A stretch of 20,070 nucleotides of DNA. Source: a virus. Below the pieces are notes generated by a model. The model searched no databases and was not told the origin of the DNA. It saw nothing but the letters and a program-made list of their open reading frames with translations. This document shows positions 1,291-20,070 of the stretch, in pieces. Position numbers and translations under genes: made by a program. Position 1 is the stretch's first letter. Each line of letters starts with the position of its first letter. The stretch lies in the IMG/VR virus record IMGVR_UViG_3300037191_002592, positions 1 to 20,070 of that record; one strand, written 5' to 3'.

Positions 1291-2400
1291 ATGGCATTAA
1301 CTAACTTTGCCGCTCTAACTTCAGAGCAAAAGACCGTATGGTCTCGCGACTTCTGGCACGCTGCCCGTAACGCATCCTTCATTAACCAATTTGCTGGTTC
1401 TGGCTCTAACGCCATGGTTCAGCGTATTACTGACTTAACTAAAAGTGAAAAGGGCGCACGCGCTGTATTAACTTTGCTAGCGGACTTGTCTGGAGACGGT
1501 GTTGTAGGTGATTACACTCTAGAAGGCAACGAAGAAGCGCTTTCTAGTTCTGACATCACAGTTCGTATCGACCAGATGCGTAACGCAAACCGTTTGGCTG
1601 GCCGTTTAGCCGACCAAAAATCTATCGTTAACTTCCGCGAAGCCTCTAAAGATTCATTGGCTTATTGGATGGCTGACCGTATGGACCAGTTAGCATTTTT
1701 AACTTTGTCTGGTTTGGCTTACACCAAGAAGAACAACGGTGGTTTGCGTACTGTAGCCGCTGCTGGCCAAAACTTAAGCAACCTTGAGTTTTCTGCAGAC
1801 GTAACTGCTCCTACTAGTGCACGTACGTTAATTGCAAACGCTGACGGTACTGTTGGTACTGGTAACCTAGCTACTACTGGCATCTTAGGCTACAAGAACA
1901 TCGTAAACCTAAAAGCTTACGCCAAAGATCACTACATGCGTGGTGTACGTGGTAAAGGTGGTGACGAAGGTTTCCATATGTTCGTTACTCCACAAGGCAT
2001 GGCTCAGTTGAAGTTAGATGCTGATTTCCTAGCTAACGTTCGTAACGCGGGCAACCGTGGACCAGTTAACTCTTTGTTCTCAGGTTCTTCTTCTGTAATG
2101 GTAGACGGCGTAATGGTTCATGAGTTCCGTCATGTATATGACACTTCTGGTGAAGCAGCTGATGGTAAGTTTGGTGCTGACGGCACAGTAAACGGCCAGC
2201 GCGCTTTGTTCTGTGGCGCACAAGCATTGGCAATGGCTGACATTGGCGACGCTGACTGGGTTGAAGACACTTACGATTACGGTAACCAGCACGGTATCTC
2301 AATCGGTAAGATCTTAGGCTTCCGTAAGCCAAAGTACACCAGCATGGTAACTGGCGATAGCCAAGACTTTGGCGTAATTACGCTAGACACTGCCATTTAA
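1291..2400 (+). CDS. Major capsid protein (N4 gp56 / DUF4043-like family)
   Basis: This 369-residue protein forms the icosahedral head shell, presumably with the HK97 fold. The family's signature region is visible in the N-terminal third: GDGVVGDYTLEGNEEAL (about residues 70-86), then IDQMRNANRLAGRLADQKS and an amphipathic helix FREASKDSLAYWMADRMDQLAFLTLSG, which corresponds to the conserved 'LEGNEE...IDQ.R......G....Q......E.A...L..W.....D......LSG' pattern of N4 gp56-like capsid proteins. The C-terminal part holds a GADGTVNGQRALFCGAQALA strand-helix stretch typical of the P/A-domain end. All 19 arginine codons are CGT or CGC, as expected for a very highly expressed gene. A long leader with a strong ribosome binding site precedes it and a strong terminator follows it, which isolates it as a transcription unit. 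No prohead protease or Ig-like insertion is seen in it. Confidence 0.92.
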   Translation: MALTNFAALTSEQKTVWSRDFWHAARNASFINQFAGSGSNAMVQRITDLTKSEKGARAVLTLLADLSGDGVVGDYTLEGNEEALSSSDITVRIDQMRNANRLAGRLADQKSIVNFREASKDSLAYWMADRMDQLAFLTLSGLAYTKKNNGGLRTVAAAGQNLSNLEFSADVTAPTSARTLIANADGTVGTGNLATTGILGYKNIVNLKAYAKDHYMRGVRGKGGDEGFHMFVTPQGMAQLKLDADFLANVRNAGNRGPVNSLFSGSSSVMVDGVMVHEFRHVYDTSGEAADGKFGADGTVNGQRALFCGAQALAMADIGDADWVEDTYDYGNQHGISIGKILGFRKPKYTSMVTGDSQDFGVITLDTAI

Positions 2401-3489: not shown

Positions 3490-4116
3490 ATGAACTACAA
3501 AGATATGGTCAGCCTACTCCCATACCAAATAGCAGGCTGTCCTGAGTTTGTAGTGGAAAAGGCAATTAAGGATGCAGTGCTGAGCTACTGCAAGCGCAGT
3601 GGCGCATACCGCGCAACGCTTGACCCGATTCTAACCGTTGAAGGCCTGTTCGAGTACGATATCGACATGCCGAGAAATACAAACATTGTCGCAATCCACT
3701 CAGTAATCCTGGGGGAAAAAGAGATATTGCCTGACACCGTGCAAGGCGCAACTCAAGCAAACGCACAGTGGCGAACAGAAAAAAGTACCCCAACGCACTA
3801 CATACGCCCGAGCAACAAACTCATGTACTTAGTGCCTGTGCCTATTAAGTCTGGGGATAACGTAATTCTCCAGGCATCGCTGAAACCCAGCTTATCTTCA
3901 ACCAACATCGAAACTGATTTTGTTGAGGATCATGTGGATGGGATTATGGCAGGTGCATTGGCTAATTTATTTAACGCACATGAGATGCCATGGGCCAACC
4001 CACAGCGGGCAGCGAAACATGAGGCTGAGTTTGGCGCTCATATACGTGATGCAAGTGAAAAGGCTGACGGACGTAATGGACCAACGCGCAGAACAGTGCG
4101 ATACGGGGGCTTGTAG
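3490..4116 (+). CDS. Hypothetical head-tail connector protein, 208 aa
   Basis: An AGGGGT lies six nt before the ATG. The N-terminus begins with a helical segment (DMVSLLPYQIAGCPEFVVEKAIKDAVLSYCKRS, residues 5-37 in outline), in which the 'P....cP..vv..ai..A...fc..s' pattern is shared with phage neck and connector proteins. It continues with beta-rich sequence (DPILTVEGLFEYDIDMP, then IRPSNKLMYLVPVP, residues about 100-117) and a helical C-terminus with a basic tail. A neck, tail-terminator or short tail-tube role fits the place between the adaptor-like gene and the ejection genes. It is far too short for the T7 gp12 nozzle (about 800 residues), so it is not a simple equivalent of it. No enzymatic motif is visible. 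Confidence 0.68.
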   Translation: MNYKDMVSLLPYQIAGCPEFVVEKAIKDAVLSYCKRSGAYRATLDPILTVEGLFEYDIDMPRNTNIVAIHSVILGEKEILPDTVQGATQANAQWRTEKSTPTHYIRPSNKLMYLVPVPIKSGDNVILQASLKPSLSSTNIETDFVEDHVDGIMAGALANLFNAHEMPWANPQRAAKHEAEFGAHIRDASEKADGRNGPTRRTVRYGGL

Positions 4117-4550
4117 TGGTTGAGTTAGTGCCGGCCACTAAGGCCGAAATTAGGGCCGACTATTTATATTTTGAGAGTGGCATGAGGGACATCATCCTCA
4201 AGGTGCGGGCGAAGTTTTGTGTCGCCGACATCTACCACCACCTTATGCAGGGGAAGGTCCACCTTTACTGGGTAGAAGAAGGTATGGATCGTCTAGGGTT
4301 CGTGATACTTAGCCAATACGATTCCGGATACGAGGAAGTGTCCACCTTAGTGATTGACCACTTATGGCTAACTCCAGCGATCGATTGTTTCGCAGAAGCC
4401 ATTGCTGCAGGCCACGATTTGGCAAGCACATTGGGCGTTGATCGTATCGAATTTAATTCAGCCCGGTTAGGTTGGGGCAAACGTGTTAAGGAGCTGGGCT
4501 TTGAGCCAGCATTCGTAACATACCATTTTCAGGTGAATAGAAATGGGTAG
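4116..4550 (+). CDS. T7 gp13-like internal virion protein, degenerate GNAT fold
   Basis: This 144-residue protein has the length and layout of T7 gp13 (138 residues), a protein related to the GNAT acetyltransferase fold. The order of elements fits that fold: an N-terminal alpha part, a beta pair around VHLYWVEEGMDRLGFVILSQ, the strand STLVIDHLWLTP (about residues 72-83), a helix AEAIAAGHDLASTLGVD and the C-terminal RIEFNSARLGWGKRVKELGF plus FVTYHF. The acetyl-CoA pyrophosphate loop (R/Q-x-x-G-x-G/A) expected after the LWLTP strand is not visible, so acetyl transfer is doubtful and a structural or ejection role is more likely. The start is GTG in a TAGTG overlap with the previous gene. It heads the run of internal-virion-type genes, as gp13 does in T7. 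Confidence 0.75.
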   Translation: MVELVPATKAEIRADYLYFESGMRDIILKVRAKFCVADIYHHLMQGKVHLYWVEEGMDRLGFVILSQYDSGYEEVSTLVIDHLWLTPAIDCFAEAIAAGHDLASTLGVDRIEFNSARLGWGKRVKELGFEPAFVTYHFQVNRNG

Positions 4551-5148
4551 TTCAGCAAGTAAAACACAAGCAGGCGAACATGAAAAAGCATTGGTGGAAA
4601 ACGCCAACACAATTGCTAATCGCAATAAAGAATTATACAGACCCCTTGAAGCAGGCTTTGTTAAGGAGTCTGGGCGCGATGTTTCTGGCGTCCTTGGTGG
4701 CAGAGCAAACGCTGATACGGCTCAGGCCTTTTCTTCAAGTCAAGGGGCCGGTTTGGGTGCTTCCGGCAGTAGTGGGGGCTTTGGCAGTGGTCGTTCTATG
4801 ATGACACAAGCCAACCAGGGGGTTATCCAAAGTAACGCGCTTGGTGGTGCATTAGCTGGGGCAAGCAAAACAGCACAGACCGTAAAAGACGGCTCACAGT
4901 TAGGTGCTGTAAAGGTTGGGCAAGGTGGCAGAAGTGTTGCAATGCAAGGTTTATCCCAAGCGGCGCGTGCTCAGAACCAAGAAATTGTAGCTAAATCCCA
5001 AGCAGCAAGCAGTATGCAAGGAACAAACATGGCGTTCGGGGCTGACCTAGGTGCAGGCCTATACAAAAAGTTTAACCCAACACCAACACCAGAATTAGAC
5101 CGTCTTCAAGCACAAATAGACAGTTTTACTAAGGCGAGACAACCATGA
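4543..5148 (+). CDS. Putative internal virion (ejection) protein, gp14-like, first of two
   Basis: This 201-residue Ala/Gly/Ser/Gln-rich protein starts at an ATG that overlaps the preceding stop by 8 nt, with AGGTGA (4531-4536) six nt upstream. It has no enzyme motif. The N-terminal half carries a polar helix with NTIANRNKELYRPLEAGFVKE, then SGVLGGRANADTAQAF and a flexible Gly/Ser stretch (GASGSSGGFGSGRS); the second half is helical and ends in a proline-rich turn and DRLQAQIDSFTKARQ. Small Ala/Gly-rich helical proteins directly after gp13 are the hallmark of T7 gp14 and P22-type pilot proteins, which insert in the outer membrane during DNA ejection. The assignment rests on position, size and composition. 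Confidence 0.68.
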   Translation: MGSSASKTQAGEHEKALVENANTIANRNKELYRPLEAGFVKESGRDVSGVLGGRANADTAQAFSSSQGAGLGASGSSGGFGSGRSMMTQANQGVIQSNALGGALAGASKTAQTVKDGSQLGAVKVGQGGRSVAMQGLSQAARAQNQEIVAKSQAASSMQGTNMAFGADLGAGLYKKFNPTPTPELDRLQAQIDSFTKARQP

Positions 5149-5828
5149 GCATATTGGACTTAGCAGGTGATTTTTTAAGCAACGTTACGCAAGGGCCCGA
5201 TAGCCACAGACGTGGTATTGGCCACCCAAGCGCGACCTCTCCCGAAGCTCAGGGCTTGAAACCCCCTGTTGCGTCGACCAGTGACCAAGGGTCATCGAAT
5301 GATAATCAAGTGATACCGACAAATCAGCCTGCCGGATCAGTTGCGGGTGATGCGCTTGCGAGTATATCGCGTGACGAGCTTGCGAACTATCTAAAGGTAT
5401 ATGGCGGCACTGAAGAAGAATTGTTAGCAGACACTAACAGCACGAAGATGATCGATGACGCTAAGTCGTCTCAGGCGCTTGGTCAGCAGGTTTCTGCTGG
5501 CATGCAGCAACGTTCGTTGAGCCGTTATGGCGCAAACCTTACAGGCGCTCAGAAGGCCTCACAGCAGCGTATGAATTCCGTGGGTAACGCAGCAAGTTTT
5601 ACTGGCGCAGTTAACAACTCGGTACTCGATCAAAGGGACCGCAACTTAGGTCTGAAAGCCTCACTTTTGGGTATGGGTAAGGAGCAGTTAGGCGTAGCGA
5701 TGGGCGGGTTAGGCAGTGCTGCAGGTATGGAGGCGTCGAGAGAATCCCAGTATCAGCGCGATAAGGCAGCAGCTCACGCATCCAACATGCAAATGATAGG
5801 TCAAATTATTGGCTTCGGAATAAGTTAG
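5145..5828 (+). CDS. Putative internal virion (ejection) protein, gp14-like, second of two
   Basis: This 227-residue protein overlaps the preceding gene by ATGA. It starts with a short helix (ILDLAGDFLSNV), continues with a long disordered Ser/Pro/Gln region (about residues 15-70), then a helical Ala/Gly-rich C-terminal part with RSLSRYGANLTGAQ, QRMNSVGNAASFTGAVNN, GLKASLLGMGKEQLGVAMGG and a final hydrophobic IGQIIGFGI. The 'Rsl.RyG' and 'GlG..A' repeats with a short hydrophobic tail resemble small ejection proteins in many podoviruses. Composition and layout are similar to its left neighbour, and the two could share or split the role of T7 gp14. I see no clear residue-by-residue homology between them by eye. 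Confidence 0.68.
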   Translation: MSILDLAGDFLSNVTQGPDSHRRGIGHPSATSPEAQGLKPPVASTSDQGSSNDNQVIPTNQPAGSVAGDALASISRDELANYLKVYGGTEEELLADTNSTKMIDDAKSSQALGQQVSAGMQQRSLSRYGANLTGAQKASQQRMNSVGNAASFTGAVNNSVLDQRDRNLGLKASLLGMGKEQLGVAMGGLGSAAGMEASRESQYQRDKAAAHASNMQMIGQIIGFGIS

Positions 5829-5838
5829 GGAAAATACC

Positions 5839-7923
5839 ATGGCATATAGCAACCCCATTTTAGGCGCAGTACTTGGCAACGAGCAACAAAAGCTGCAGAA
5901 CAAACAGTTTGAGGCAAATCTTTCCCTCGACATCGAAAAATTAGGCTCCCAAAAACGCGGCTGGGACGCGTCTGCTAAGGCCTTAGAGTTAAGCAATAGA
6001 AACACAGAACTTAAAGAAGCCTTTGCCTATTACAAAAGTGGCGTAATGGATCAAGAAACGGGTAACTTCCCCTCACCAGAGCAGCTCGTTGCTGACCCAG
6101 CGTGGAACCAACGCGTTGTCGATTTTTACAACACAGACCTTGTCAAAAAAGTCTGGGACAATGATGGTACGGGTAAGACGTTTAAAGGTTTCGTGCCCGT
6201 AAGTGGCGGTCAAGCGGTCATGGAACTAAGTGACCCAAACGCGTCTCCCCAAGAACGTAAGTTCGTTACTGAAAAAGGCACAAGTGATCAAAACGATAAC
6301 CCCATGCTACTTGATGAAGCGGGATATGCTCGTTTCAACGGCAAGATTGTGTCACAGATGGAGAATGCGGCGGGCATGCTTGGCCAATTTGGCCGTGATG
6401 CAATGCAAGACGTTGGCAACGACAGCCGGGGTCAAACTGCAGCAGTACTTGAAGCGACGAACCCATTGAGTCGATCTACATTAAATAGTGCTGTACAACC
6501 TCAGCAGCCACAGCAGCCTCAGCCTCAGCCACAGCAGCAAGCAGCGCCCGCCGACGGCGTAACTGAGATACCTATAGACCAGTCAGCAGTTGAAGTTCCT
6601 GCCGCTTATGGCAGCGCTGACGGCCAACAACTATCCCTAATGAAACCGGGGGGCAATAAACGAAAAGCAAAGCTAGCTAATTTAGCTACGGTATACAAAT
6701 TGTTGAGGGACCCCCAAAAAGCCAGTGAACTATCCGGCTATACTCCGGAAGCGTTGGCTGGGATTAATGATACTCAGTTAAAGGATGCTGCAAAATTCCA
6801 TAAAAAGGCTATTGAAGGTTTCGGCAGAAAAGATAAAAGAGCGGGGGCTCGAACGCTAGAAAGTAAGCCATTAAGCGAAGATGATCAGAATCAACTAGCC
6901 CTGCACACTTCTGCTTTAAGTGAAATTAAGGCATTAGCGGCAAATCGCATGCAGATTGGTCAAGCTGTTGATCAAAATAACATGGCCGCCAAGGCAGCTA
7001 AGAACGCCGTTACCACACAGGCTGCTAGCGTTAATATGGTCACTGACCCTACTAAACAGCAAGTCCTTGACAGTGCGATTAAGGAAGAGATAGGTACTGA
7101 CCCGAAAGCTATCGAAGCGGCTGCAACCAAAGCAGCGACCAAAATAGCGGACATATCCCCTGGGAAAAAGCTGACCAAAAAGGACGTGTACCAGTTACTA
7201 ACGTTAAAAAACACAGACACCATCGATCAGGCCACGTTTAATCGGTTCATTGATCATGGCGTGCTGTCTAGCGACACAATAGACCTGGTGAAAAACAACA
7301 TCAACAAACAGGTTGAGCTGGCCAAGCAGGCAGGCATGAACCGAACGAAACTCCAGCAAGAACGGATCAAGCAGGCTGCTGACGAGAACGGCGATACGTT
7401 CGACCGGTTTACAGCGCTTGATGCGACTGCCAACGAAGACCCAGCTGCCTACCTAACCAATATGTTCGCTTCTAGAAATAAAGGTGGCCTATCAAACGAC
7501 GAATCCGCACACCTTAGTGTTCATATGGGACAGAAACTTAATGATGAATTCAACATTAATTGGTTCACCAGCCCATACGACACCATGGTTCAAGGCGATT
7601 TAGACCCACAAAATGCAGCCATCGGCATGTCCAGTTTCGCTCTAGACGGGGATAGACTTATTGCGTTGGATGAGAATGGTGAACCTCGCGGCGATCGAGA
7701 TGTTTACCTTAGCGAGTTTAGCGCAGATGAGCAGAAGTACTTCAAGTCAGAGCTGAAAGGCGTTTATGAAACGCGAGTGCAGAACATTACATCTGAGACT
7801 GCCCGCATTCAGAAAAAAATTAACGAAGGTTTTGAGAGTGTCGTCGACAAGCAAAATTCACTTGCCCGACTTATAGTTTTGAGAGAACAAGGCAAACTTG
7901 TGAAACAGCTGCAGGGTAACTAA
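5839..7923 (+). CDS. Putative internal virion protein, T7 gp15-like, 694 aa
   Basis: AGGGAAA before the ATG supports this start. The length is close to T7 gp15 (747 residues), and it sits at the same place between gp14-like and gp16-like genes. It is polar and mainly helical without a signal peptide, a membrane segment or an obvious catalytic motif. Residues 1-210 form a charged domain (NPILGAVLGNEQQKLQ..., then AYYKSGVMDQETGNFPSPEQL and a Trp-containing DPAWNQRVVDFYNTDLVKK). A Gln/Pro-rich linker at residues 220-234 follows, then a long helical part with Ala/Lys-rich stretches (about residues 380-450) and an EF-like acid cluster near DENGEPRGDRDVYLSEF. Such proteins form the periplasmic tunnel during genome ejection in T7. 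Specific function here is inferred from context. Confidence 0.7.
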   Translation: MAYSNPILGAVLGNEQQKLQNKQFEANLSLDIEKLGSQKRGWDASAKALELSNRNTELKEAFAYYKSGVMDQETGNFPSPEQLVADPAWNQRVVDFYNTDLVKKVWDNDGTGKTFKGFVPVSGGQAVMELSDPNASPQERKFVTEKGTSDQNDNPMLLDEAGYARFNGKIVSQMENAAGMLGQFGRDAMQDVGNDSRGQTAAVLEATNPLSRSTLNSAVQPQQPQQPQPQPQQQAAPADGVTEIPIDQSAVEVPAAYGSADGQQLSLMKPGGNKRKAKLANLATVYKLLRDPQKASELSGYTPEALAGINDTQLKDAAKFHKKAIEGFGRKDKRAGARTLESKPLSEDDQNQLALHTSALSEIKALAANRMQIGQAVDQNNMAAKAAKNAVTTQAASVNMVTDPTKQQVLDSAIKEEIGTDPKAIEAAATKAATKIADISPGKKLTKKDVYQLLTLKNTDTIDQATFNRFIDHGVLSSDTIDLVKNNINKQVELAKQAGMNRTKLQQERIKQAADENGDTFDRFTALDATANEDPAAYLTNMFASRNKGGLSNDESAHLSVHMGQKLNDEFNINWFTSPYDTMVQGDLDPQNAAIGMSSFALDGDRLIALDENGEPRGDRDVYLSEFSADEQKYFKSELKGVYETRVQNITSETARIQKKINEGFESVVDKQNSLARLIVLREQGKLVKQLQGN
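6496..6540 (+). repeat. CAG/CCT-rich simple repeat coding for a Gln/Pro linker
   Basis: Imperfect repeats of CAGCAGCCT and CAGCCT encode alternating Gln and Pro (residues 220-234 of the gp15-like protein). It most likely marks a flexible hinge between the N-terminal domain and the helical body, and is a natural site for length variation. Confidence 0.7.
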
Positions 7924-10900
7924 TGAGCGGATTCGACATAGACCAACAGATACAAGATCTCGAAAAGCAGATTGCTCTTGATATAAAAAGCGAGAGCGTA
8001 ATCCCCAACATAGATCTGATGATCGCTGATCTAGAAGCAGGGGAAGTAATGACCCCCCAGAATCTATCCGCTACTGAGGCGGGTTTTGAAGCGGGGCGTA
8101 AAGGCCTAATCTCGTCTAAGGAGACGGCAGGCGCAGCCTTTAATTATTTGATTGGCGACGATGAGGCTGGTGCTGCGCGTTTAAAAACAGCAGCGACAAT
8201 TGATGGTCAGGTTGGTCGATTAGCTAGCCAATACGCTAGCTTTGAAGATTTTATAGAGGACCCAGGGTTTAGTAACTTCGCTGAGATGTCAGCATTTAAG
8301 CTTGGCCAAGCGGTTCCATCAGCCATTGAAAGTTTTGCAGCGGGTACTGCAGGCGCAGCCATCGGTTTCTCAACTGGGGCAGGCGTAGGCGCATTGCCGG
8401 GTTTCGCTGCTGGACTAGTTGGTAAGGGTCAAGCAAAGCGCATGGTGCGTGATGCCATCCTCGAATATGCCAAAGGCAAAGGCACTAAAGAATCTATAGA
8501 GGTTGCTCAACAAGCACTTAAATTGAGTGCTATAAAAAGCCTGACATCCAAAGGGGCAAAAACGGGCGCCCTTAGCGCTGGTTATTACCAAGGTGTTGCT
8601 TCCTCCTTTAGTGAATCTCTAGAGACAGGACAAGATCGAACTGAGGCAGCTGGGTTAGCAGCATTGATGGGCGTTCCATTCGCTGTTGCCGACGTAGCAC
8701 CTGAGATATTGTTTGTAAAATCCTTGTCAAAGCTCGCAAAAACATCTGGAACGAAGTCTGTATTTGGGAATGTTGTAGGTTCTGCATTCAAACAAGGCGG
8801 GGCAGAAGCGCTTGCGGAAGCCAGCCAAGAAGGTTTAATTGTTGCACAACGCTTCCAGCAAGACCCAAACTACGATAAAGAACGCGCAATCATGCGGATT
8901 GCTGATGCAGCGTACTCAGGTCTAGTAGCTGGTGGTGCATTAGGTACTAGTTCAGGCACTATTAAAGCGACCTTCTCATCAGCGCAAAAAATCCTAAACG
9001 ACACACGAAAAACGATGGATGCGAAGCCTTTCACCCCCGGATCTACGGTTAACAGCTTTGAATTCGAGGATACATCCCCAGAAGGTATGGCCGGAGTCCC
9101 TCTTAACGAGTTGGTCTATGCAGTAAAAGATGCCCAAGACGGAGAAACACTTGGCGCCGACCCTACTACTCAGGAACATGCAGCCGCTGCCATTCAGGAA
9201 CTGAATCGACGTTCGGAAGAGATGGGCCCTAACAGGTTCCAAGAGCTCGTTAAAAAAGAGCTACAGCGAGGGGCAACCCTACCGGAAAACGATAAGTCTG
9301 AGGTTGAGCAAGAAATATTCAATGAGACGGATCTGCCAGAAGCAGGCGCTACTGAACAGCGCACGGCGGACGGTGAATTAAGTGAACAACCACAAGGCTT
9401 TGAAGAGCGTTTGTTAGGTAAAAATAACAAAGGTGACGGTTATGTGCCTGGCAGTCGCGCCATCCGTACACGTCTCAAAAAACTACAAAAAGAGAACCCA
9501 GGGCTTCAGTATCGCCTCGTTCAAAAAGAGGGCGCTGAGTTTATAGAAGAGGTTGTCGAAAGCAGCTTCGACGTCAGCCAGATAGTTAATGAAGGTATTA
9601 ACAAGGCGCGTGCTGGCACAAAGGAAGGCGGCAAAGACCGCACTCTTCCAGCAACCGATCCTCAAGGGAAGAACATTAAGTTGTCACCGGCGGAGCTTGC
9701 TCACGCAGGTATGAGGGCGAACAACAAAGACAAAGCTAATGCATCCAGCATGACTTACCCGCAGTTACTCATGTCGGGTTTCTTACGCATGAACCAGGAG
9801 CTTGCGGACAAAGGGTTCAAGATTGACCTTAATACGTTGCCTGATAGCACTATCATCGCCAAAGCGAATGGCAAAGCATACACATGGGGCGACCTTAAAA
9901 AAGCATGGTCCAAACGGGCAAACACAAAAGAAGGTTCTGCATTTGATGGCAAGGCCGCAAAAGAAGATGCGTTAATCAGCACAGAAGAAAAGATAGAGAA
10001 GTTGATTGCAGAGCTCGAGAAACTTGACCCCAATTCACAAGGACGTGCGGCAGAAATCAGTACCGAATTAGACACTGCCGAAGCCAGCCGTGAAGATCAG
10101 GCGAACGTTTTAGAACAGAATGAAGAAGTAGAAACTGACACCATCGCAATGGGTGAGGCCCAAGCACAACAGGATGCTAAAAAAACGCGGAACGTTGATG
10201 AGAATGGTAACCCTATTTCGTACTCAACACGTAAAGGGGCGAAACCTAAAACGACCGCTAAGCCGAAACCTAAGCAGGCCCAGAAGGCAGCACCCGTTAA
10301 AGAACGAGTGATTGGCAAAGTGTCAGTATGGGGAGCGTTTCCTGACGTATTCGCAAACTACGCCAACGCTATTATTGCGGCAGTTGGTATAAAGAAAAAA
10401 GTCAATATTATGTGGGCCGAAGATGCCGAAGCCTTTTTAGAGCAGCATCCAGGTGCGGTAGATGGCGCCATAATCAATAAGGCAACAGAAGGCTCACAAC
10501 GGGCAATGGTTTATCAGCTTGACGATGTTGCCTACGTCTTTGTTAAAAAAGGCGTTGATAACGATTACCGCATAGCAAACACCGCCGCTATTTTAGCGCA
10601 CGAACTTGGCCATATACTCTATCGCGAAAGCTTAGATAACATGACTGATGCCAACCTAGCCCGACTAAAAAAGGCCTATCAGGAACAGTTAAAGTCTAAG
10701 AGCAATAAGCAATATACAAACGACGATGCCGGCTTCCAGGAATGGTATTCGGATCAGGTATCTGCATGGGCTGCCAAACAAACAACTAACCCAACCAAAT
10801 TTGCTGAGTCACATTTCAAACGTGTTGCTGCAAAGATGCAAACGCTGTGGCGCAAGTCACGCCAGTTTGTTCGTCAGAATGTGCGTAATTTGACTGACAA

Positions 10901-13004
10901 ACAGAGGCAGGCATTACGGACGATGAAGGACCGTTTCACTTTGGACGAAACTTTCGAGCAGTACATGGAAAGCGTGATGGAAAGCGTCCACGGCGGACAA
11001 TCCCAGTCTTCCCAATCTGAGTCCCAATCTGAGCCCAATTGGCGATACGCTAACGAATCAACCAAAGCAAATCCTGCAGCTGATGTGGACATAGATGCTG
11101 CAATTAAGCGCCTCCAAAGCAAGCCAGCGGTAACTAAGCTGGTAGAAGCCATGCAACAGGTGTGGGAATCGGGTATGGCGGACGGCCTACTTAAGGTCAT
11201 TCTATCTGCAGATCAGTACGCTCGACTTCGGTTAGGTAAGTACGGCCCTGCGTTTGCTAACCTGTTCTACCACCGCACTCAGTCATCTAACAATAACCAA
11301 GGCGATATGCTCAACAAACAGCATCACGCATTAGATAAGTGGAATGCCCAGTTTGCAGAAATTCTAGGGGAAGATCCTGAGCACTCAGATAAAGTCCTGG
11401 AAGAAATGCAGGCCGGTGTTAACATCAACGACTCGATAGATCCAAAGATGCGACAGCAGTTGGCGGACGTCTTTGAGCGTTTCCACAAAGATTACCTAGT
11501 AAAGCGTATGCCGAAAATAGGAAAGATCCGCAACTACTTCCCAATTGTATACAACATATTGGCCATCCAGGAAAACCCAGATGCGTTTGTGGCCGAGCTT
11601 AAGAAGGGCGGGCTTAATCAAGCAGAAGCACAGACGGTCATGCGCACGATGCTTGAGAACGATGGTGCATTCATTGAAGACGTGCCAAACCATGAGTTAT
11701 TTGGCCCTAAGTTCAACGCCAAGATGCAGCGTACATTAAAGAACATGGATGCGAAGGCAATGCAGAAGCTTGGGTTCTACCAAAACCCGATGGTTGCCGT
11801 TCAGTTGTACTTAAAGCAAGCAACTAAACACGCAGAATACAACGTTATAAAGGATGACGCGGAAGCACTGTTAAACAAGATGCCTCCCAAGCAACGCGCT
11901 CATGCTCGTAAAATTGTGCTTGGTTACATGGGCCGGTTGGGTGCGCAGATCGACCCTAAGTGGAACAAGTTCCAGTCATACATCGCAGCATTGCAGTTTG
12001 CAACCACACTACTTTTCGCTACAGTGGCGTCGTTCACTGATCTGGGCAACCCAATCGTTCGGGCAAAAGATATGGACGGTTTTAAAAGCGCACTTGGCAA
12101 CTGGCGTAAATTCATGAGTAAACAAAGCCGGGAAGAGATGACTGAGTTCGCAGAGCGTATTGGCGCAGCGTCGCGTGAAGCTGTGCGTGAAGCATTGAAC
12201 CAGTCTTACAACTCAGAATATATTGATCCAGGCGCACGTAAGTGGTCAGACAAATATTTCAAGGCTATTGGACTAGAGCATTGGACGCGCATGACTCGTA
12301 TTATCTCAGCTAATATGGCGAGGGATTTTATTAGCACCCACGCCAAAAAAGCGACAGCGGGGGACAAACGCAGCATGCGCTACCTCAAAGAACTAGGCCT
12401 GACTGCTGAGACCGCCACCAAAGGCTATGACCGAGAAACAGACACACTTGATCTAACCACTCCGGAAGGTCAAGCAGTGCAAGATGCGATCCTCAATTTT
12501 GTTGACGAAGCCATTGTTCGGCCTAACGCCGCACAACGACCTACCTGGGCGAGTGATCCACACTACATGTTGATTTGGCAATTAAAGAGCTTCTTCTACT
12601 CATTCGGACAAATCGTTGTTGGCGGTGTCGCCCGCGAGATGCAGTCGCGTTGGGCAGAAGGCGACAGAGCGAAATCTGCGTTACCAGCAATGGTGTTGTT
12701 CGCTGCACTCTTACCGCTTGCAGCACTCGCATTACAAACTAGGGAGATGATCAAAGGGGCGTTTAAAGACGACGAACGCGAAAAGCCAGAAGAAGATACA
12801 ATCAACTACTTGTTCGACCTAGTTGATCGCGCCGGTATCTTAGGACCATTATCGATCATAAAATCAATGTCTGACGCAGGTAACTATGGGCGTAGCGGAG
12901 TGTTTGCTGCACTAGGCCCAACTGCGGGAACCCTTGAAACATTTTTGGATGGGGACACGCAGGGGTTGGCTAAAAGGCTAATACCCATCTACTCACAGTT
13001 ATAA
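7923..13004 (+). CDS. Giant gp16-like ejection protein with embedded zinc-metallopeptidase motif
   Basis: At 1693 residues this is longer than T7 gp16 (1318) and is the last of the ejection cluster. A Gly/Ala-rich hydrophobic stretch at residues 140-167 could insert in membranes; GGAEALAEASQEGL (292-305) resembles the 'G.EG.TE..QE' motif of large phage pilot proteins. Residues 440-560 are acidic and polar, and 740-785 are Lys-rich and probably disordered. HELGH at 893-897, followed by FQEWYSD with Glu940, is a gluzincin-like zinc site; the stretch before it (about 785-890) has a matching alpha/beta layout. The C-terminal half is helical, with hydrophobic segments at 1350-1371 and 1586-1604, and resembles the 'large polyvalent protein' tail domains (possibly LPD38). 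The SLT lytic transglycosylase found at the N-terminus of T7 gp16 is not visible, so the peptidase may replace it as wall- or envelope-processing activity. ATG overlaps the previous stop by one base. Confidence 0.8.
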   Translation: MSGFDIDQQIQDLEKQIALDIKSESVIPNIDLMIADLEAGEVMTPQNLSATEAGFEAGRKGLISSKETAGAAFNYLIGDDEAGAARLKTAATIDGQVGRLASQYASFEDFIEDPGFSNFAEMSAFKLGQAVPSAIESFAAGTAGAAIGFSTGAGVGALPGFAAGLVGKGQAKRMVRDAILEYAKGKGTKESIEVAQQALKLSAIKSLTSKGAKTGALSAGYYQGVASSFSESLETGQDRTEAAGLAALMGVPFAVADVAPEILFVKSLSKLAKTSGTKSVFGNVVGSAFKQGGAEALAEASQEGLIVAQRFQQDPNYDKERAIMRIADAAYSGLVAGGALGTSSGTIKATFSSAQKILNDTRKTMDAKPFTPGSTVNSFEFEDTSPEGMAGVPLNELVYAVKDAQDGETLGADPTTQEHAAAAIQELNRRSEEMGPNRFQELVKKELQRGATLPENDKSEVEQEIFNETDLPEAGATEQRTADGELSEQPQGFEERLLGKNNKGDGYVPGSRAIRTRLKKLQKENPGLQYRLVQKEGAEFIEEVVESSFDVSQIVNEGINKARAGTKEGGKDRTLPATDPQGKNIKLSPAELAHAGMRANNKDKANASSMTYPQLLMSGFLRMNQELADKGFKIDLNTLPDSTIIAKANGKAYTWGDLKKAWSKRANTKEGSAFDGKAAKEDALISTEEKIEKLIAELEKLDPNSQGRAAEISTELDTAEASREDQANVLEQNEEVETDTIAMGEAQAQQDAKKTRNVDENGNPISYSTRKGAKPKTTAKPKPKQAQKAAPVKERVIGKVSVWGAFPDVFANYANAIIAAVGIKKKVNIMWAEDAEAFLEQHPGAVDGAIINKATEGSQRAMVYQLDDVAYVFVKKGVDNDYRIANTAAILAHELGHILYRESLDNMTDANLARLKKAYQEQLKSKSNKQYTNDDAGFQEWYSDQVSAWAAKQTTNPTKFAESHFKRVAAKMQTLWRKSRQFVRQNVRNLTDKQRQALRTMKDRFTLDETFEQYMESVMESVHGGQSQSSQSESQSEPNWRYANESTKANPAADVDIDAAIKRLQSKPAVTKLVEAMQQVWESGMADGLLKVILSADQYARLRLGKYGPAFANLFYHRTQSSNNNQGDMLNKQHHALDKWNAQFAEILGEDPEHSDKVLEEMQAGVNINDSIDPKMRQQLADVFERFHKDYLVKRMPKIGKIRNYFPIVYNILAIQENPDAFVAELKKGGLNQAEAQTVMRTMLENDGAFIEDVPNHELFGPKFNAKMQRTLKNMDAKAMQKLGFYQNPMVAVQLYLKQATKHAEYNVIKDDAEALLNKMPPKQRAHARKIVLGYMGRLGAQIDPKWNKFQSYIAALQFATTLLFATVASFTDLGNPIVRAKDMDGFKSALGNWRKFMSKQSREEMTEFAERIGAASREAVREALNQSYNSEYIDPGARKWSDKYFKAIGLEHWTRMTRIISANMARDFISTHAKKATAGDKRSMRYLKELGLTAETATKGYDRETDTLDLTTPEGQAVQDAILNFVDEAIVRPNAAQRPTWASDPHYMLIWQLKSFFYSFGQIVVGGVAREMQSRWAEGDRAKSALPAMVLFAALLPLAALALQTREMIKGAFKDDEREKPEEDTINYLFDLVDRAGILGPLSIIKSMSDAGNYGRSGVFAALGPTAGTLETFLDGDTQGLAKRLIPIYSQL

Positions 13005-19168: not shown

Positions 19169-20070
19169 ATGAGTAAATCAAGAAATATAGCAGACCTATT
19201 GGATAGCAATGGAGACGTTAAATCGTCCAGCTTAGATAATGTTGCTGCTTTGAGTGGTAGTAGCACTGGTCTAGGTGAGTCTGCATTAGCCAACGATGAT
19301 GGTACATATAATAGGAATACCGCTTTTGGTCATGAAGCTTTAACCACTAACACAACAGGTAGTTATAACGCTGCTAGTGGTTGGTCTGCTTTAAAATATA
19401 ACACCACAGGTGATGCTAACACAGCTACGGGTTATGGTACTTTACTCTTGAATACCACAGGTGATTATAACACAGCTAATGGTGTGATGGCTTTATACTC
19501 AAATACCACAGGTAATAGTAATACAGCTAATGGTTTTGATGCTTTAAAATTTAACACCACAGGTGCTAATAACACTGCTACTGGTTCATATGCTTTAACA
19601 AGTATCACCACAGGTGTTCTGAACATAGGTCTTGGTCGTGGTGCTGGTGATGCTATCACTACTGGTTCTAATAACACTGTAATTGGTGATTTGACTGGCA
19701 CTGCTACAATGGCTGACACAGTCTTAATTGGCGCTGGTAATACAGAGCGATTGAAGGTTACTAGTTCTGGTTTATTTGTTAATGGATCATCTACTGCTTT
19801 GACAGGAATTACTTCAGCCCAAGCAGCAGCGATTACAGCTAATACAGCTAAGGTATCCAACGTAGACCACCCATTGGTTGAGACTGCGGTTCCCTCAGGT
19901 GCCGTATTTACAGACACCAACACTGACACCACTTACACTGTTGGTGATGGTGGCCTTACACAGATTAACTTTACTACAGCAGATAATACTAAGTTAGATG
20001 GTATAGCTACCGGAGCTAATAACTACAGCCATCCAGCTAACCACTCTATTTCCGTTATCACAGGGCTACA
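19169..20070 (+). CDS. Tail fibre with 17-residue NTTG repeats (3'-partial)
   Basis: AAGGA (19155-19159) lies nine nt before the ATG, and the frame stays open to the right edge (300 codons seen). After a short N-terminus (MSKSRNIADLLDSNGDVKSS) there are seven 17-residue units of the pattern TTGxxNTAxGxxALxxN, a trimeric head-type repeat found in fibres and adhesins of marine phages and bacteria. TERLKVTSSGLFVNG follows, then a segment with AVPSGAVFTDT, TYTVGDGGLTQINF, TKLDGIATGANNYSHPANH. Fibres of this type often end in an intramolecular chaperone (peptidase S74 type) that would lie beyond the window, so I cannot confirm it. It is probably a distal receptor-binding fibre. Confidence 0.78.
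   Translation, partial: MSKSRNIADLLDSNGDVKSSSLDNVAALSGSSTGLGESALANDDGTYNRNTAFGHEALTTNTTGSYNAASGWSALKYNTTGDANTATGYGTLLLNTTGDYNTANGVMALYSNTTGNSNTANGFDALKFNTTGANNTATGSYALTSITTGVLNIGLGRGAGDAITTGSNNTVIGDLTGTATMADTVLIGAGNTERLKVTSSGLFVNGSSTALTGITSAQAAAITANTAKVSNVDHPLVETAVPSGAVFTDTNTDTTYTVGDGGLTQINFTTADNTKLDGIATGANNYSHPANHSISVITGL
19352..19708 (+). repeat. 51-bp tandem repeat, seven units
   Basis: Seven consecutive 51-bp units begin at 19352, 19403, 19454, 19505, 19556, 19607 and 19658. Each starts with ACC/ACA/ACT-ACA-GGT (Thr-Thr-Gly) and most contain AACACAGCT (Asn-Thr-Ala). The first five are close at DNA level; the last two are degenerate. An irregular unit precedes them. Such arrays can lengthen or shorten by slippage. 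Confidence 0.85.

What the first reader, a model, noticed from the sequence alone, without database searches (positions are those of the whole stretch)
10599..10744. HELGH zinc-metallopeptidase embedded mid-protein in a gp16-like ejection protein
HELGH at residues 893-897 with a downstream Glu940 in FQEWYSD looks like a complete gluzincin-type site, while the lytic transglycosylase expected at the N-terminus of T7 gp16 is not visible. The phage may carry a protease into the cell with its DNA: to open the peptidoglycan or envelope, to mature the ejection proteins themselves, or to cleave a host defence protein on entry.
Basis: partly seen in the sequence, partly recalled or inferred. Interest (0 to 1): 0.7.

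Follow-up and report, generated by a model that had tools for sequence, protein, structure and literature searches.

The report
Protease domain in phage ejection protein
A marine-type phage packs a giant protein, probably injected with its DNA, that carries an intact zinc-protease domain; the domain is real and strictly conserved, but phage proteins of this general kind were already described in 2017.

Summary
ORF 7923-13004 (1693 aa) has HELGH at residues 893-897 and Glu940 in FQEWYSD. It is not chance: all 101 distinct relatives compared keep HExxH (or HExxxH) with a downstream Glu. In the set retrieved only through the C-terminal domain, every protein long enough to contain the site keeps both. 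A 55-sequence AlphaFold2 model (pLDDT 89.7) has the zincin fold order. Its best solved-structure matches are gluzincins (M1 aminopeptidases, LTA4 hydrolase, M61, M9, lethal factor).

Context supports an ejected internal virion protein. Gene order and sizes parallel T7 13-14-15-16, the C-terminal module is shared with annotated virion structural proteins of KPP25 and tf, and four relatives carry an N-terminal peptidoglycan hydrolase in the same chain. That last point argues against the protease replacing the missing transglycosylase.

The closest known kind is the phage-type 'polyvalent protein' with a zincin MPTase (Iyer 2017). This clade has no Pfam family of its own and is not alignable by profile to the N4 vRNAP MPTase. 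Most likely role: proteolytic processing of the ejected polypeptide (inferred). Cleavage of a host protein is the main rival. New member of a known kind; moderate-low interest.

The parts
7923..13004 (+). 1693-aa polyvalent, gp16-like internal virion (ejection) protein
   Evidence: PHROG virion structural protein matches over residues 1112-1683; full-length relatives
7923..9122 (+). N-terminal conserved region (res 1-400), hydrophobic stretch 242-265; invariant E/E/Q motif in the family
10023..10313 (+). variable K/P-rich linker before the protease (res 701-797)
10314..10973 (+). zincin (gluzincin-type) metallopeptidase domain, res 798-1017
   Evidence: AlphaFold2 model pLDDT 89.7; VIA-align matches to gluzincins; PDB profile hits all clan MA peptidases
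10599..10613 (+). HELGH, H893/E894/H897: zinc ligands and general base (by analogy)
10734..10757 (+). FQEWYSDQ, E940 = predicted third zinc ligand; F938, E940, W941, D944 invariant in alignment A3
10974..11120 (+). hypervariable S/Q-rich linker after the protease (res 1018-1066)
11076..13001 (+). C-terminal virion module (res 1052-1693), two hydrophobic segments 1354-1372 and 1586-1604; shared with KPP25, tf, BroderSalsa, CRP-810 gp34
5839..7923 (+). 694-aa ORF directly upstream, position and size of T7 gp15; a 620-840 aa ORF lies there in about 92 of 144 relatives tested
4543..5828 (+). two small ORFs (201 and 227 aa), position of T7 gp14; second has a weak virion-structural PHROG hit
4116..4550 (+). 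144-aa ORF in the place of T7 gene 13; GNAT-like by eye only, no BLASTP similarity to gp13
1291..2400 (+). major capsid protein; holds a conserved HEFRH without a Glu partner, a built-in negative control

Best explanation
The gene encodes a phage-type polyvalent protein: a giant internal virion protein that sits at the place of T7 gp16 and is probably ejected into the cell with the DNA. Between two flexible, fast-changing linkers it carries an intact gluzincin-type zinc peptidase. H893, H897 and E940 bind zinc and E894 activates water (by analogy with clan MA). The most likely role is processing: the peptidase cuts the ejected polypeptide, in itself or between copies or partner ejection proteins, so that the N-terminal part and the C-terminal module can act apart. 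Shown: ORF, residues, conservation, predicted fold, module boundaries, synteny. Inferred: zinc binding, activity, packaging and ejection of this protein, and the substrate.
For: Catalytic residues are invariant in all distinct relatives, in a set not chosen by the motif as well. A HExxxH variant matches one described for polyvalent-protein MPTases (PMC5512222). Fold order is beta-alpha-beta-beta then HExxH helix then Glu helix at pLDDT 89.7. VIA-align's top rows are all gluzincins, Z up to 9.6, and 13 of 13 PDB profile hits are clan MA peptidases, though each is weak. Viral structure matches include 'large polyvalent protein' entries. One relative passes Pfam's M48 cut-off. The C-terminal module is shared with annotated virion structural proteins. 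For processing: the domain is bounded by linkers on both sides. In Roseobacter phage CRP-810 the downstream module is a separate gene (gp34, module from residue 99) just after a gene with two HExxH sites, so the two halves need not be one chain. P1 DdrB, another MPTase polyvalent protein, is processed before packaging (PMC5512222).
Against: No cleavage data exist for this family. N4 vRNAP, which has an MPTase domain, is packaged unprocessed (PMC5512222). The linkers are not conserved, so no fixed self-cleavage site is visible. The protease body has diverged more (36-38% identity) than the modules beside it (about 60-74%) in the next-closest clade, which would also suit a changing host target. 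PDB Foldseek gave no match below E 0.1, and most VIA Z values are in the range that can be a common arrangement.
Confidence: 0.5

Rival explanations
1. Injected effector: the peptidase cleaves a host protein (defence factor, envelope or regulatory protein) at entry.
For: Polyvalent proteins commonly carry injected effector domains (ART, nucleases; PMC5512222). phiA008's relative has an SNase domain at its N-terminus and CRP-810 gp35 a below-cut-off ART-PolyVal match beside HExxH sites. The protease body diverges faster than its neighbours while the active site stays fixed.
Against: An arms-race effector would be expected to be lost or dead in some members; none of 101 was. No substrate is suggested by any data.
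Confidence: 0.33
2. It opens the peptidoglycan or envelope in place of the missing lytic transglycosylase.
For: No SLT domain in this record or in two related ~60-kb records.
Against: Relatives L058, L084, L088 and L082 have an N-terminal peptidoglycan hydrolase plus this protease in one chain, so the two are not alternatives. The fold resembles peptide-cleaving gluzincins rather than known wall amidases or endopeptidases.
Confidence: 0.07
3. The HExxH/Glu is a chance or degenerate motif in a structural protein.
For: HExxH alone also occurs, conserved, in the capsid protein here and once in T7 gp16.
Against: Joint motif never arises in shuffles; invariant HExxH and Glu; zincin fold.
Confidence: 0.04

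Closest known systems
Phage-type polyvalent proteins with zincin-like MPTase (Iyer et al. 2017, PMC5512222)
   Same: Giant multidomain late/virion protein, MPTase in the middle, HExxH plus Glu on the next core helix, HExxxH variant present, relatives with lysozyme-like, SNase or ART domains
   Different: This clade has its own signature GF[EDQ]EW[YF][AS]DQ and no named Pfam family; no LPD or MPTase-PolyVal Pfam match in the window protein
N4 virion RNA polymerase C1/MPTase domain (gp50)
   Same: Ejected giant virion protein with HExxH and a following (N)E[FY]MAW helix; both are zincin-like
   Different: No polymerase here; profile comparison does not unite the two beyond the motif (prob 3.5%, E 0.012)
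P1 DdrB
   Same: MPTase in a head-packaged polyvalent protein, HELGH
   Different: MPTase at the C-terminus with a ParB-like N-terminal domain; weak pairwise match only (E 0.0016)
T7 gp16 internal virion protein
   Same: Gene position and size order 13-14-15-16; relatives have an N-terminal peptidoglycan hydrolase
   Different: No significant sequence similarity found; T7 gp16 has no such protease domain known to me
Gluzincin peptidases M1/M48/M61
   Same: Fold and HExxH+Glu site; one relative just above the M48 cut-off
   Different: Glu is 47 residues after the first His of HExxH in this protein (45-56 in the set), unlike M1's short spacing; window protein below the M48 cut-off

Membership tests
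Zincin / gluzincin (clan MA) metallopeptidases | HExxH on a helix, conserved | tested here: met
Zincin / gluzincin (clan MA) metallopeptidases | Downstream Glu as third ligand, conserved, on a following helix | tested here: met
   E940 in helix; conserved in all
Zincin / gluzincin (clan MA) metallopeptidases | Zincin fold | tested here: met
   AF2 model plus VIA-align best rows all gluzincins; Foldseek PDB itself weak
Zincin / gluzincin (clan MA) metallopeptidases | Zinc binding and peptidase activity | not testable with these tools
   needs protein
Phage-type polyvalent proteins | Large multidomain protein encoded among virion structural genes | tested here: met
Phage-type polyvalent proteins | Zincin-like MPTase combined with unrelated activities in one chain across the family | tested here: met
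   SNase in phiA008; PG hydrolase in L058, L084, L088, L082
Phage-type polyvalent proteins | Match to a named Pfam LPD or MPTase-PolyVal family | tested here: not met
   none in the window protein at E<=1; LPD1 only in a remote relative
Phage-type polyvalent proteins | Packaged and delivered with the DNA | not tested
   inferred from KPP25/tf virion annotation
T7 gp16 family | Sequence homology to gp16 | tested here: inconclusive
   no significant match
T7 gp16 family | Gene order 13-14-15-16 before fibres | tested here: met
   620-840 aa upstream ORF in about 92 of 144 loci
T7 gp16 family | N-terminal lytic transglycosylase | tested here: not met
   absent in the window protein, present in some relatives
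N4 vRNAP MPTase clade | Profile-level similarity | tested here: inconclusive
Peptidase M48 (Pfam) | Score above the curated cut-off | tested here: not met
   window 15.5 vs 20.3 bits; relative L005 20.8 bits

The most novel reading that the evidence does not exclude
A large, mostly uncultivated clade of aquatic podoviruses injects a dedicated protease that cleaves a specific host protein at the moment of entry, with the substrate tracking the host.
Probability: 0.25. Interest if true: 0.7.

Novelty: new member of a known kind. Interest (0 to 1): 0.35.

Why it matters
It gives a clean test case for an open question raised in 2017: what the commonest domain of phage polyvalent proteins does. Here the protease is strictly conserved, sits next to a recognisable virion module, and has a relative in a cultured phage (Aeromonas phiA008), so one active-site mutant could decide between self-processing and host targeting.

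Tried and rejected
Pfam on the ORF: only sub-threshold M48. Plasmid search: no match. Sequence search of PDB with the five-sequence profile: nothing relevant. Five-sequence AF2 model was mediocre (67.8) and was replaced by the 55-sequence one. KPP25's own HESMH site does not align to this domain, so KPP25 shares the C-terminal module, not demonstrably this protease. tf, BroderSalsa and TL-2011b have the C-terminal module with no HExxH, so the protease is optional for podoviruses in general. N4 and DdrB profile comparisons were weak. PHROG 873 search of two related records was uninformative, no control rang. Bacterial genome scan returned only one marine MAG contig, so no prophage or host evidence. 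T7 gp16 homology not shown. Conservation of FxEWxxD in the set is partly circular because that peptide was a search pattern; the set was used instead.

Full report
What is there. The window is a 20-kb virus record. ORF 7923-13004 encodes 1693 aa. Upstream are a major capsid protein, two SU10-type adaptors, a 144-aa ORF, two small ORFs and a 694-aa ORF; downstream are fibre-type genes. The order and sizes parallel T7 genes 13 (138 aa), 14 (196 aa), 15 (747 aa) and 16 (1318 aa).

Is it more than chance? HExxH alone can be chance: the capsid protein here has a conserved HEFRH and T7 gp16 has HERLH. The joint motif did not arise in 5000 shuffles of this protein. Four full-length relatives found without the motif keep it. 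Aeromonas phage phiA008 gp66, 25% identical in the domain, keeps HELGH and FDEWFADQ (hhalign prob 98.4, E 9e-15). To avoid circularity I retrieved 80 loci through the C-terminal module only. Every protein long enough to hold the site has HExxH and the Glu; the three lacking it are contig-truncated. In all, 101 of 101 distinct proteins have it, one as HExxxH.

Fold. With 55 sequences in the alignment the domain model reaches pLDDT 89.7: strand, helix, two strands, HExxH helix, then, after one more helix, a helix bearing Glu940. VIA-align's best solved structures are M1 aminopeptidases, LTA4 hydrolase, M61, M9 collagenases and lethal factor, Z up to 9.6; the top rows are all gluzincins. Plain Foldseek against PDB gave no E below 0.1; against viral models its best hits include entries named 'large polyvalent protein'. 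The 55-sequence profile against PDB sequences gives 13 weak hits, all of them clan MA peptidases. Residues H893, E894, G896, H897, F938, E940, W941 and D944 are invariant in that alignment (HExxxH in L083 is aligned with a gap).

Architecture. The protease lies between a K/P-rich linker and an S/Q-rich linker that change quickly. The region after it, residues 1052-1693, is a module shared with KPP25, tf, BroderSalsa and CRP-810 gp34, annotated as virion structural in KPP25 and tf. tf-like proteins have the module without any HExxH. In CRP-810 the module is its own gene following a gene with two HExxH sites. Four relatives have an N-terminal peptidoglycan hydrolase in the same chain as the protease; L082 shows an SLT-like ESGGG..ARGPFQFM stretch. 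phiA008 has an N-terminal SNase domain. The catalytic domain has diverged to 36-38% identity in a clade where the modules downstream of it are about 60-74% identical.

Mechanism. The anatomy fits a proteolytic unit carried by an ejected polyprotein. I favour processing of the ejected chain or its partners, because the domain sits at a junction between modules that exist as separate genes elsewhere and because its active site is never lost. Prior cases cut both ways: P1 DdrB is processed, N4 vRNAP is packaged whole (PMC5512222; the HExxH of the N4 C1 domain is also noted in PMC12633501). Fast change in the body of the protease is compatible with a host target. Peptidoglycan opening is unlikely, given the co-occurring hydrolases.

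Known or new. Iyer et al. 2017 (PMC5512222) described zincin-like MPTases as the commonest domain of polyvalent proteins, including phage ones, with 12 clades, HExxxH variants, fusion to lysozyme domains, and the self-processing and effector ideas. This is a further clade of that kind with a distinctive GFxEWYADQ signature, abundant in uncultivated viral contigs and found in one cultured phage among 50,697 phage records searched. I could not check whether it coincides with one of their 12 clades.

Noticed in passing
window 1291-2400: The major capsid protein carries a conserved HExxH (HEFRH) with no Glu partner, a useful warning against motif-only protease calls.
   Followed up: partly
L008:4030-10182 (phiA008 gp66): N-terminal staphylococcal-nuclease domain in the same chain as the protease: a possible injected nuclease.
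   Followed up: no
L083:5424-10514: HEALGH (HExxxH) variant of the active site in an otherwise typical member.
   Followed up: partly
L012 (CRP-810 gp35) and L013 (Mae-Yong1326-1): Giant proteins with two HExxH sites each, plus a weak ART-PolyVal match and an LPD1 domain respectively.
   Followed up: no
window 19169-20068: ORF with repeats of the type NTTGxxNTAxGxxAL, resembling a repetitive fibre or adhesin head; runs off the contig end.
   Followed up: no
L202 gp16 res 1081-1111 versus window protein res 1528-1557: Short resemblance DEA..RP...Q.KSF between T7 gp16 and the C-terminal module at a similar relative position; not significant (E 4.9).
   Followed up: no
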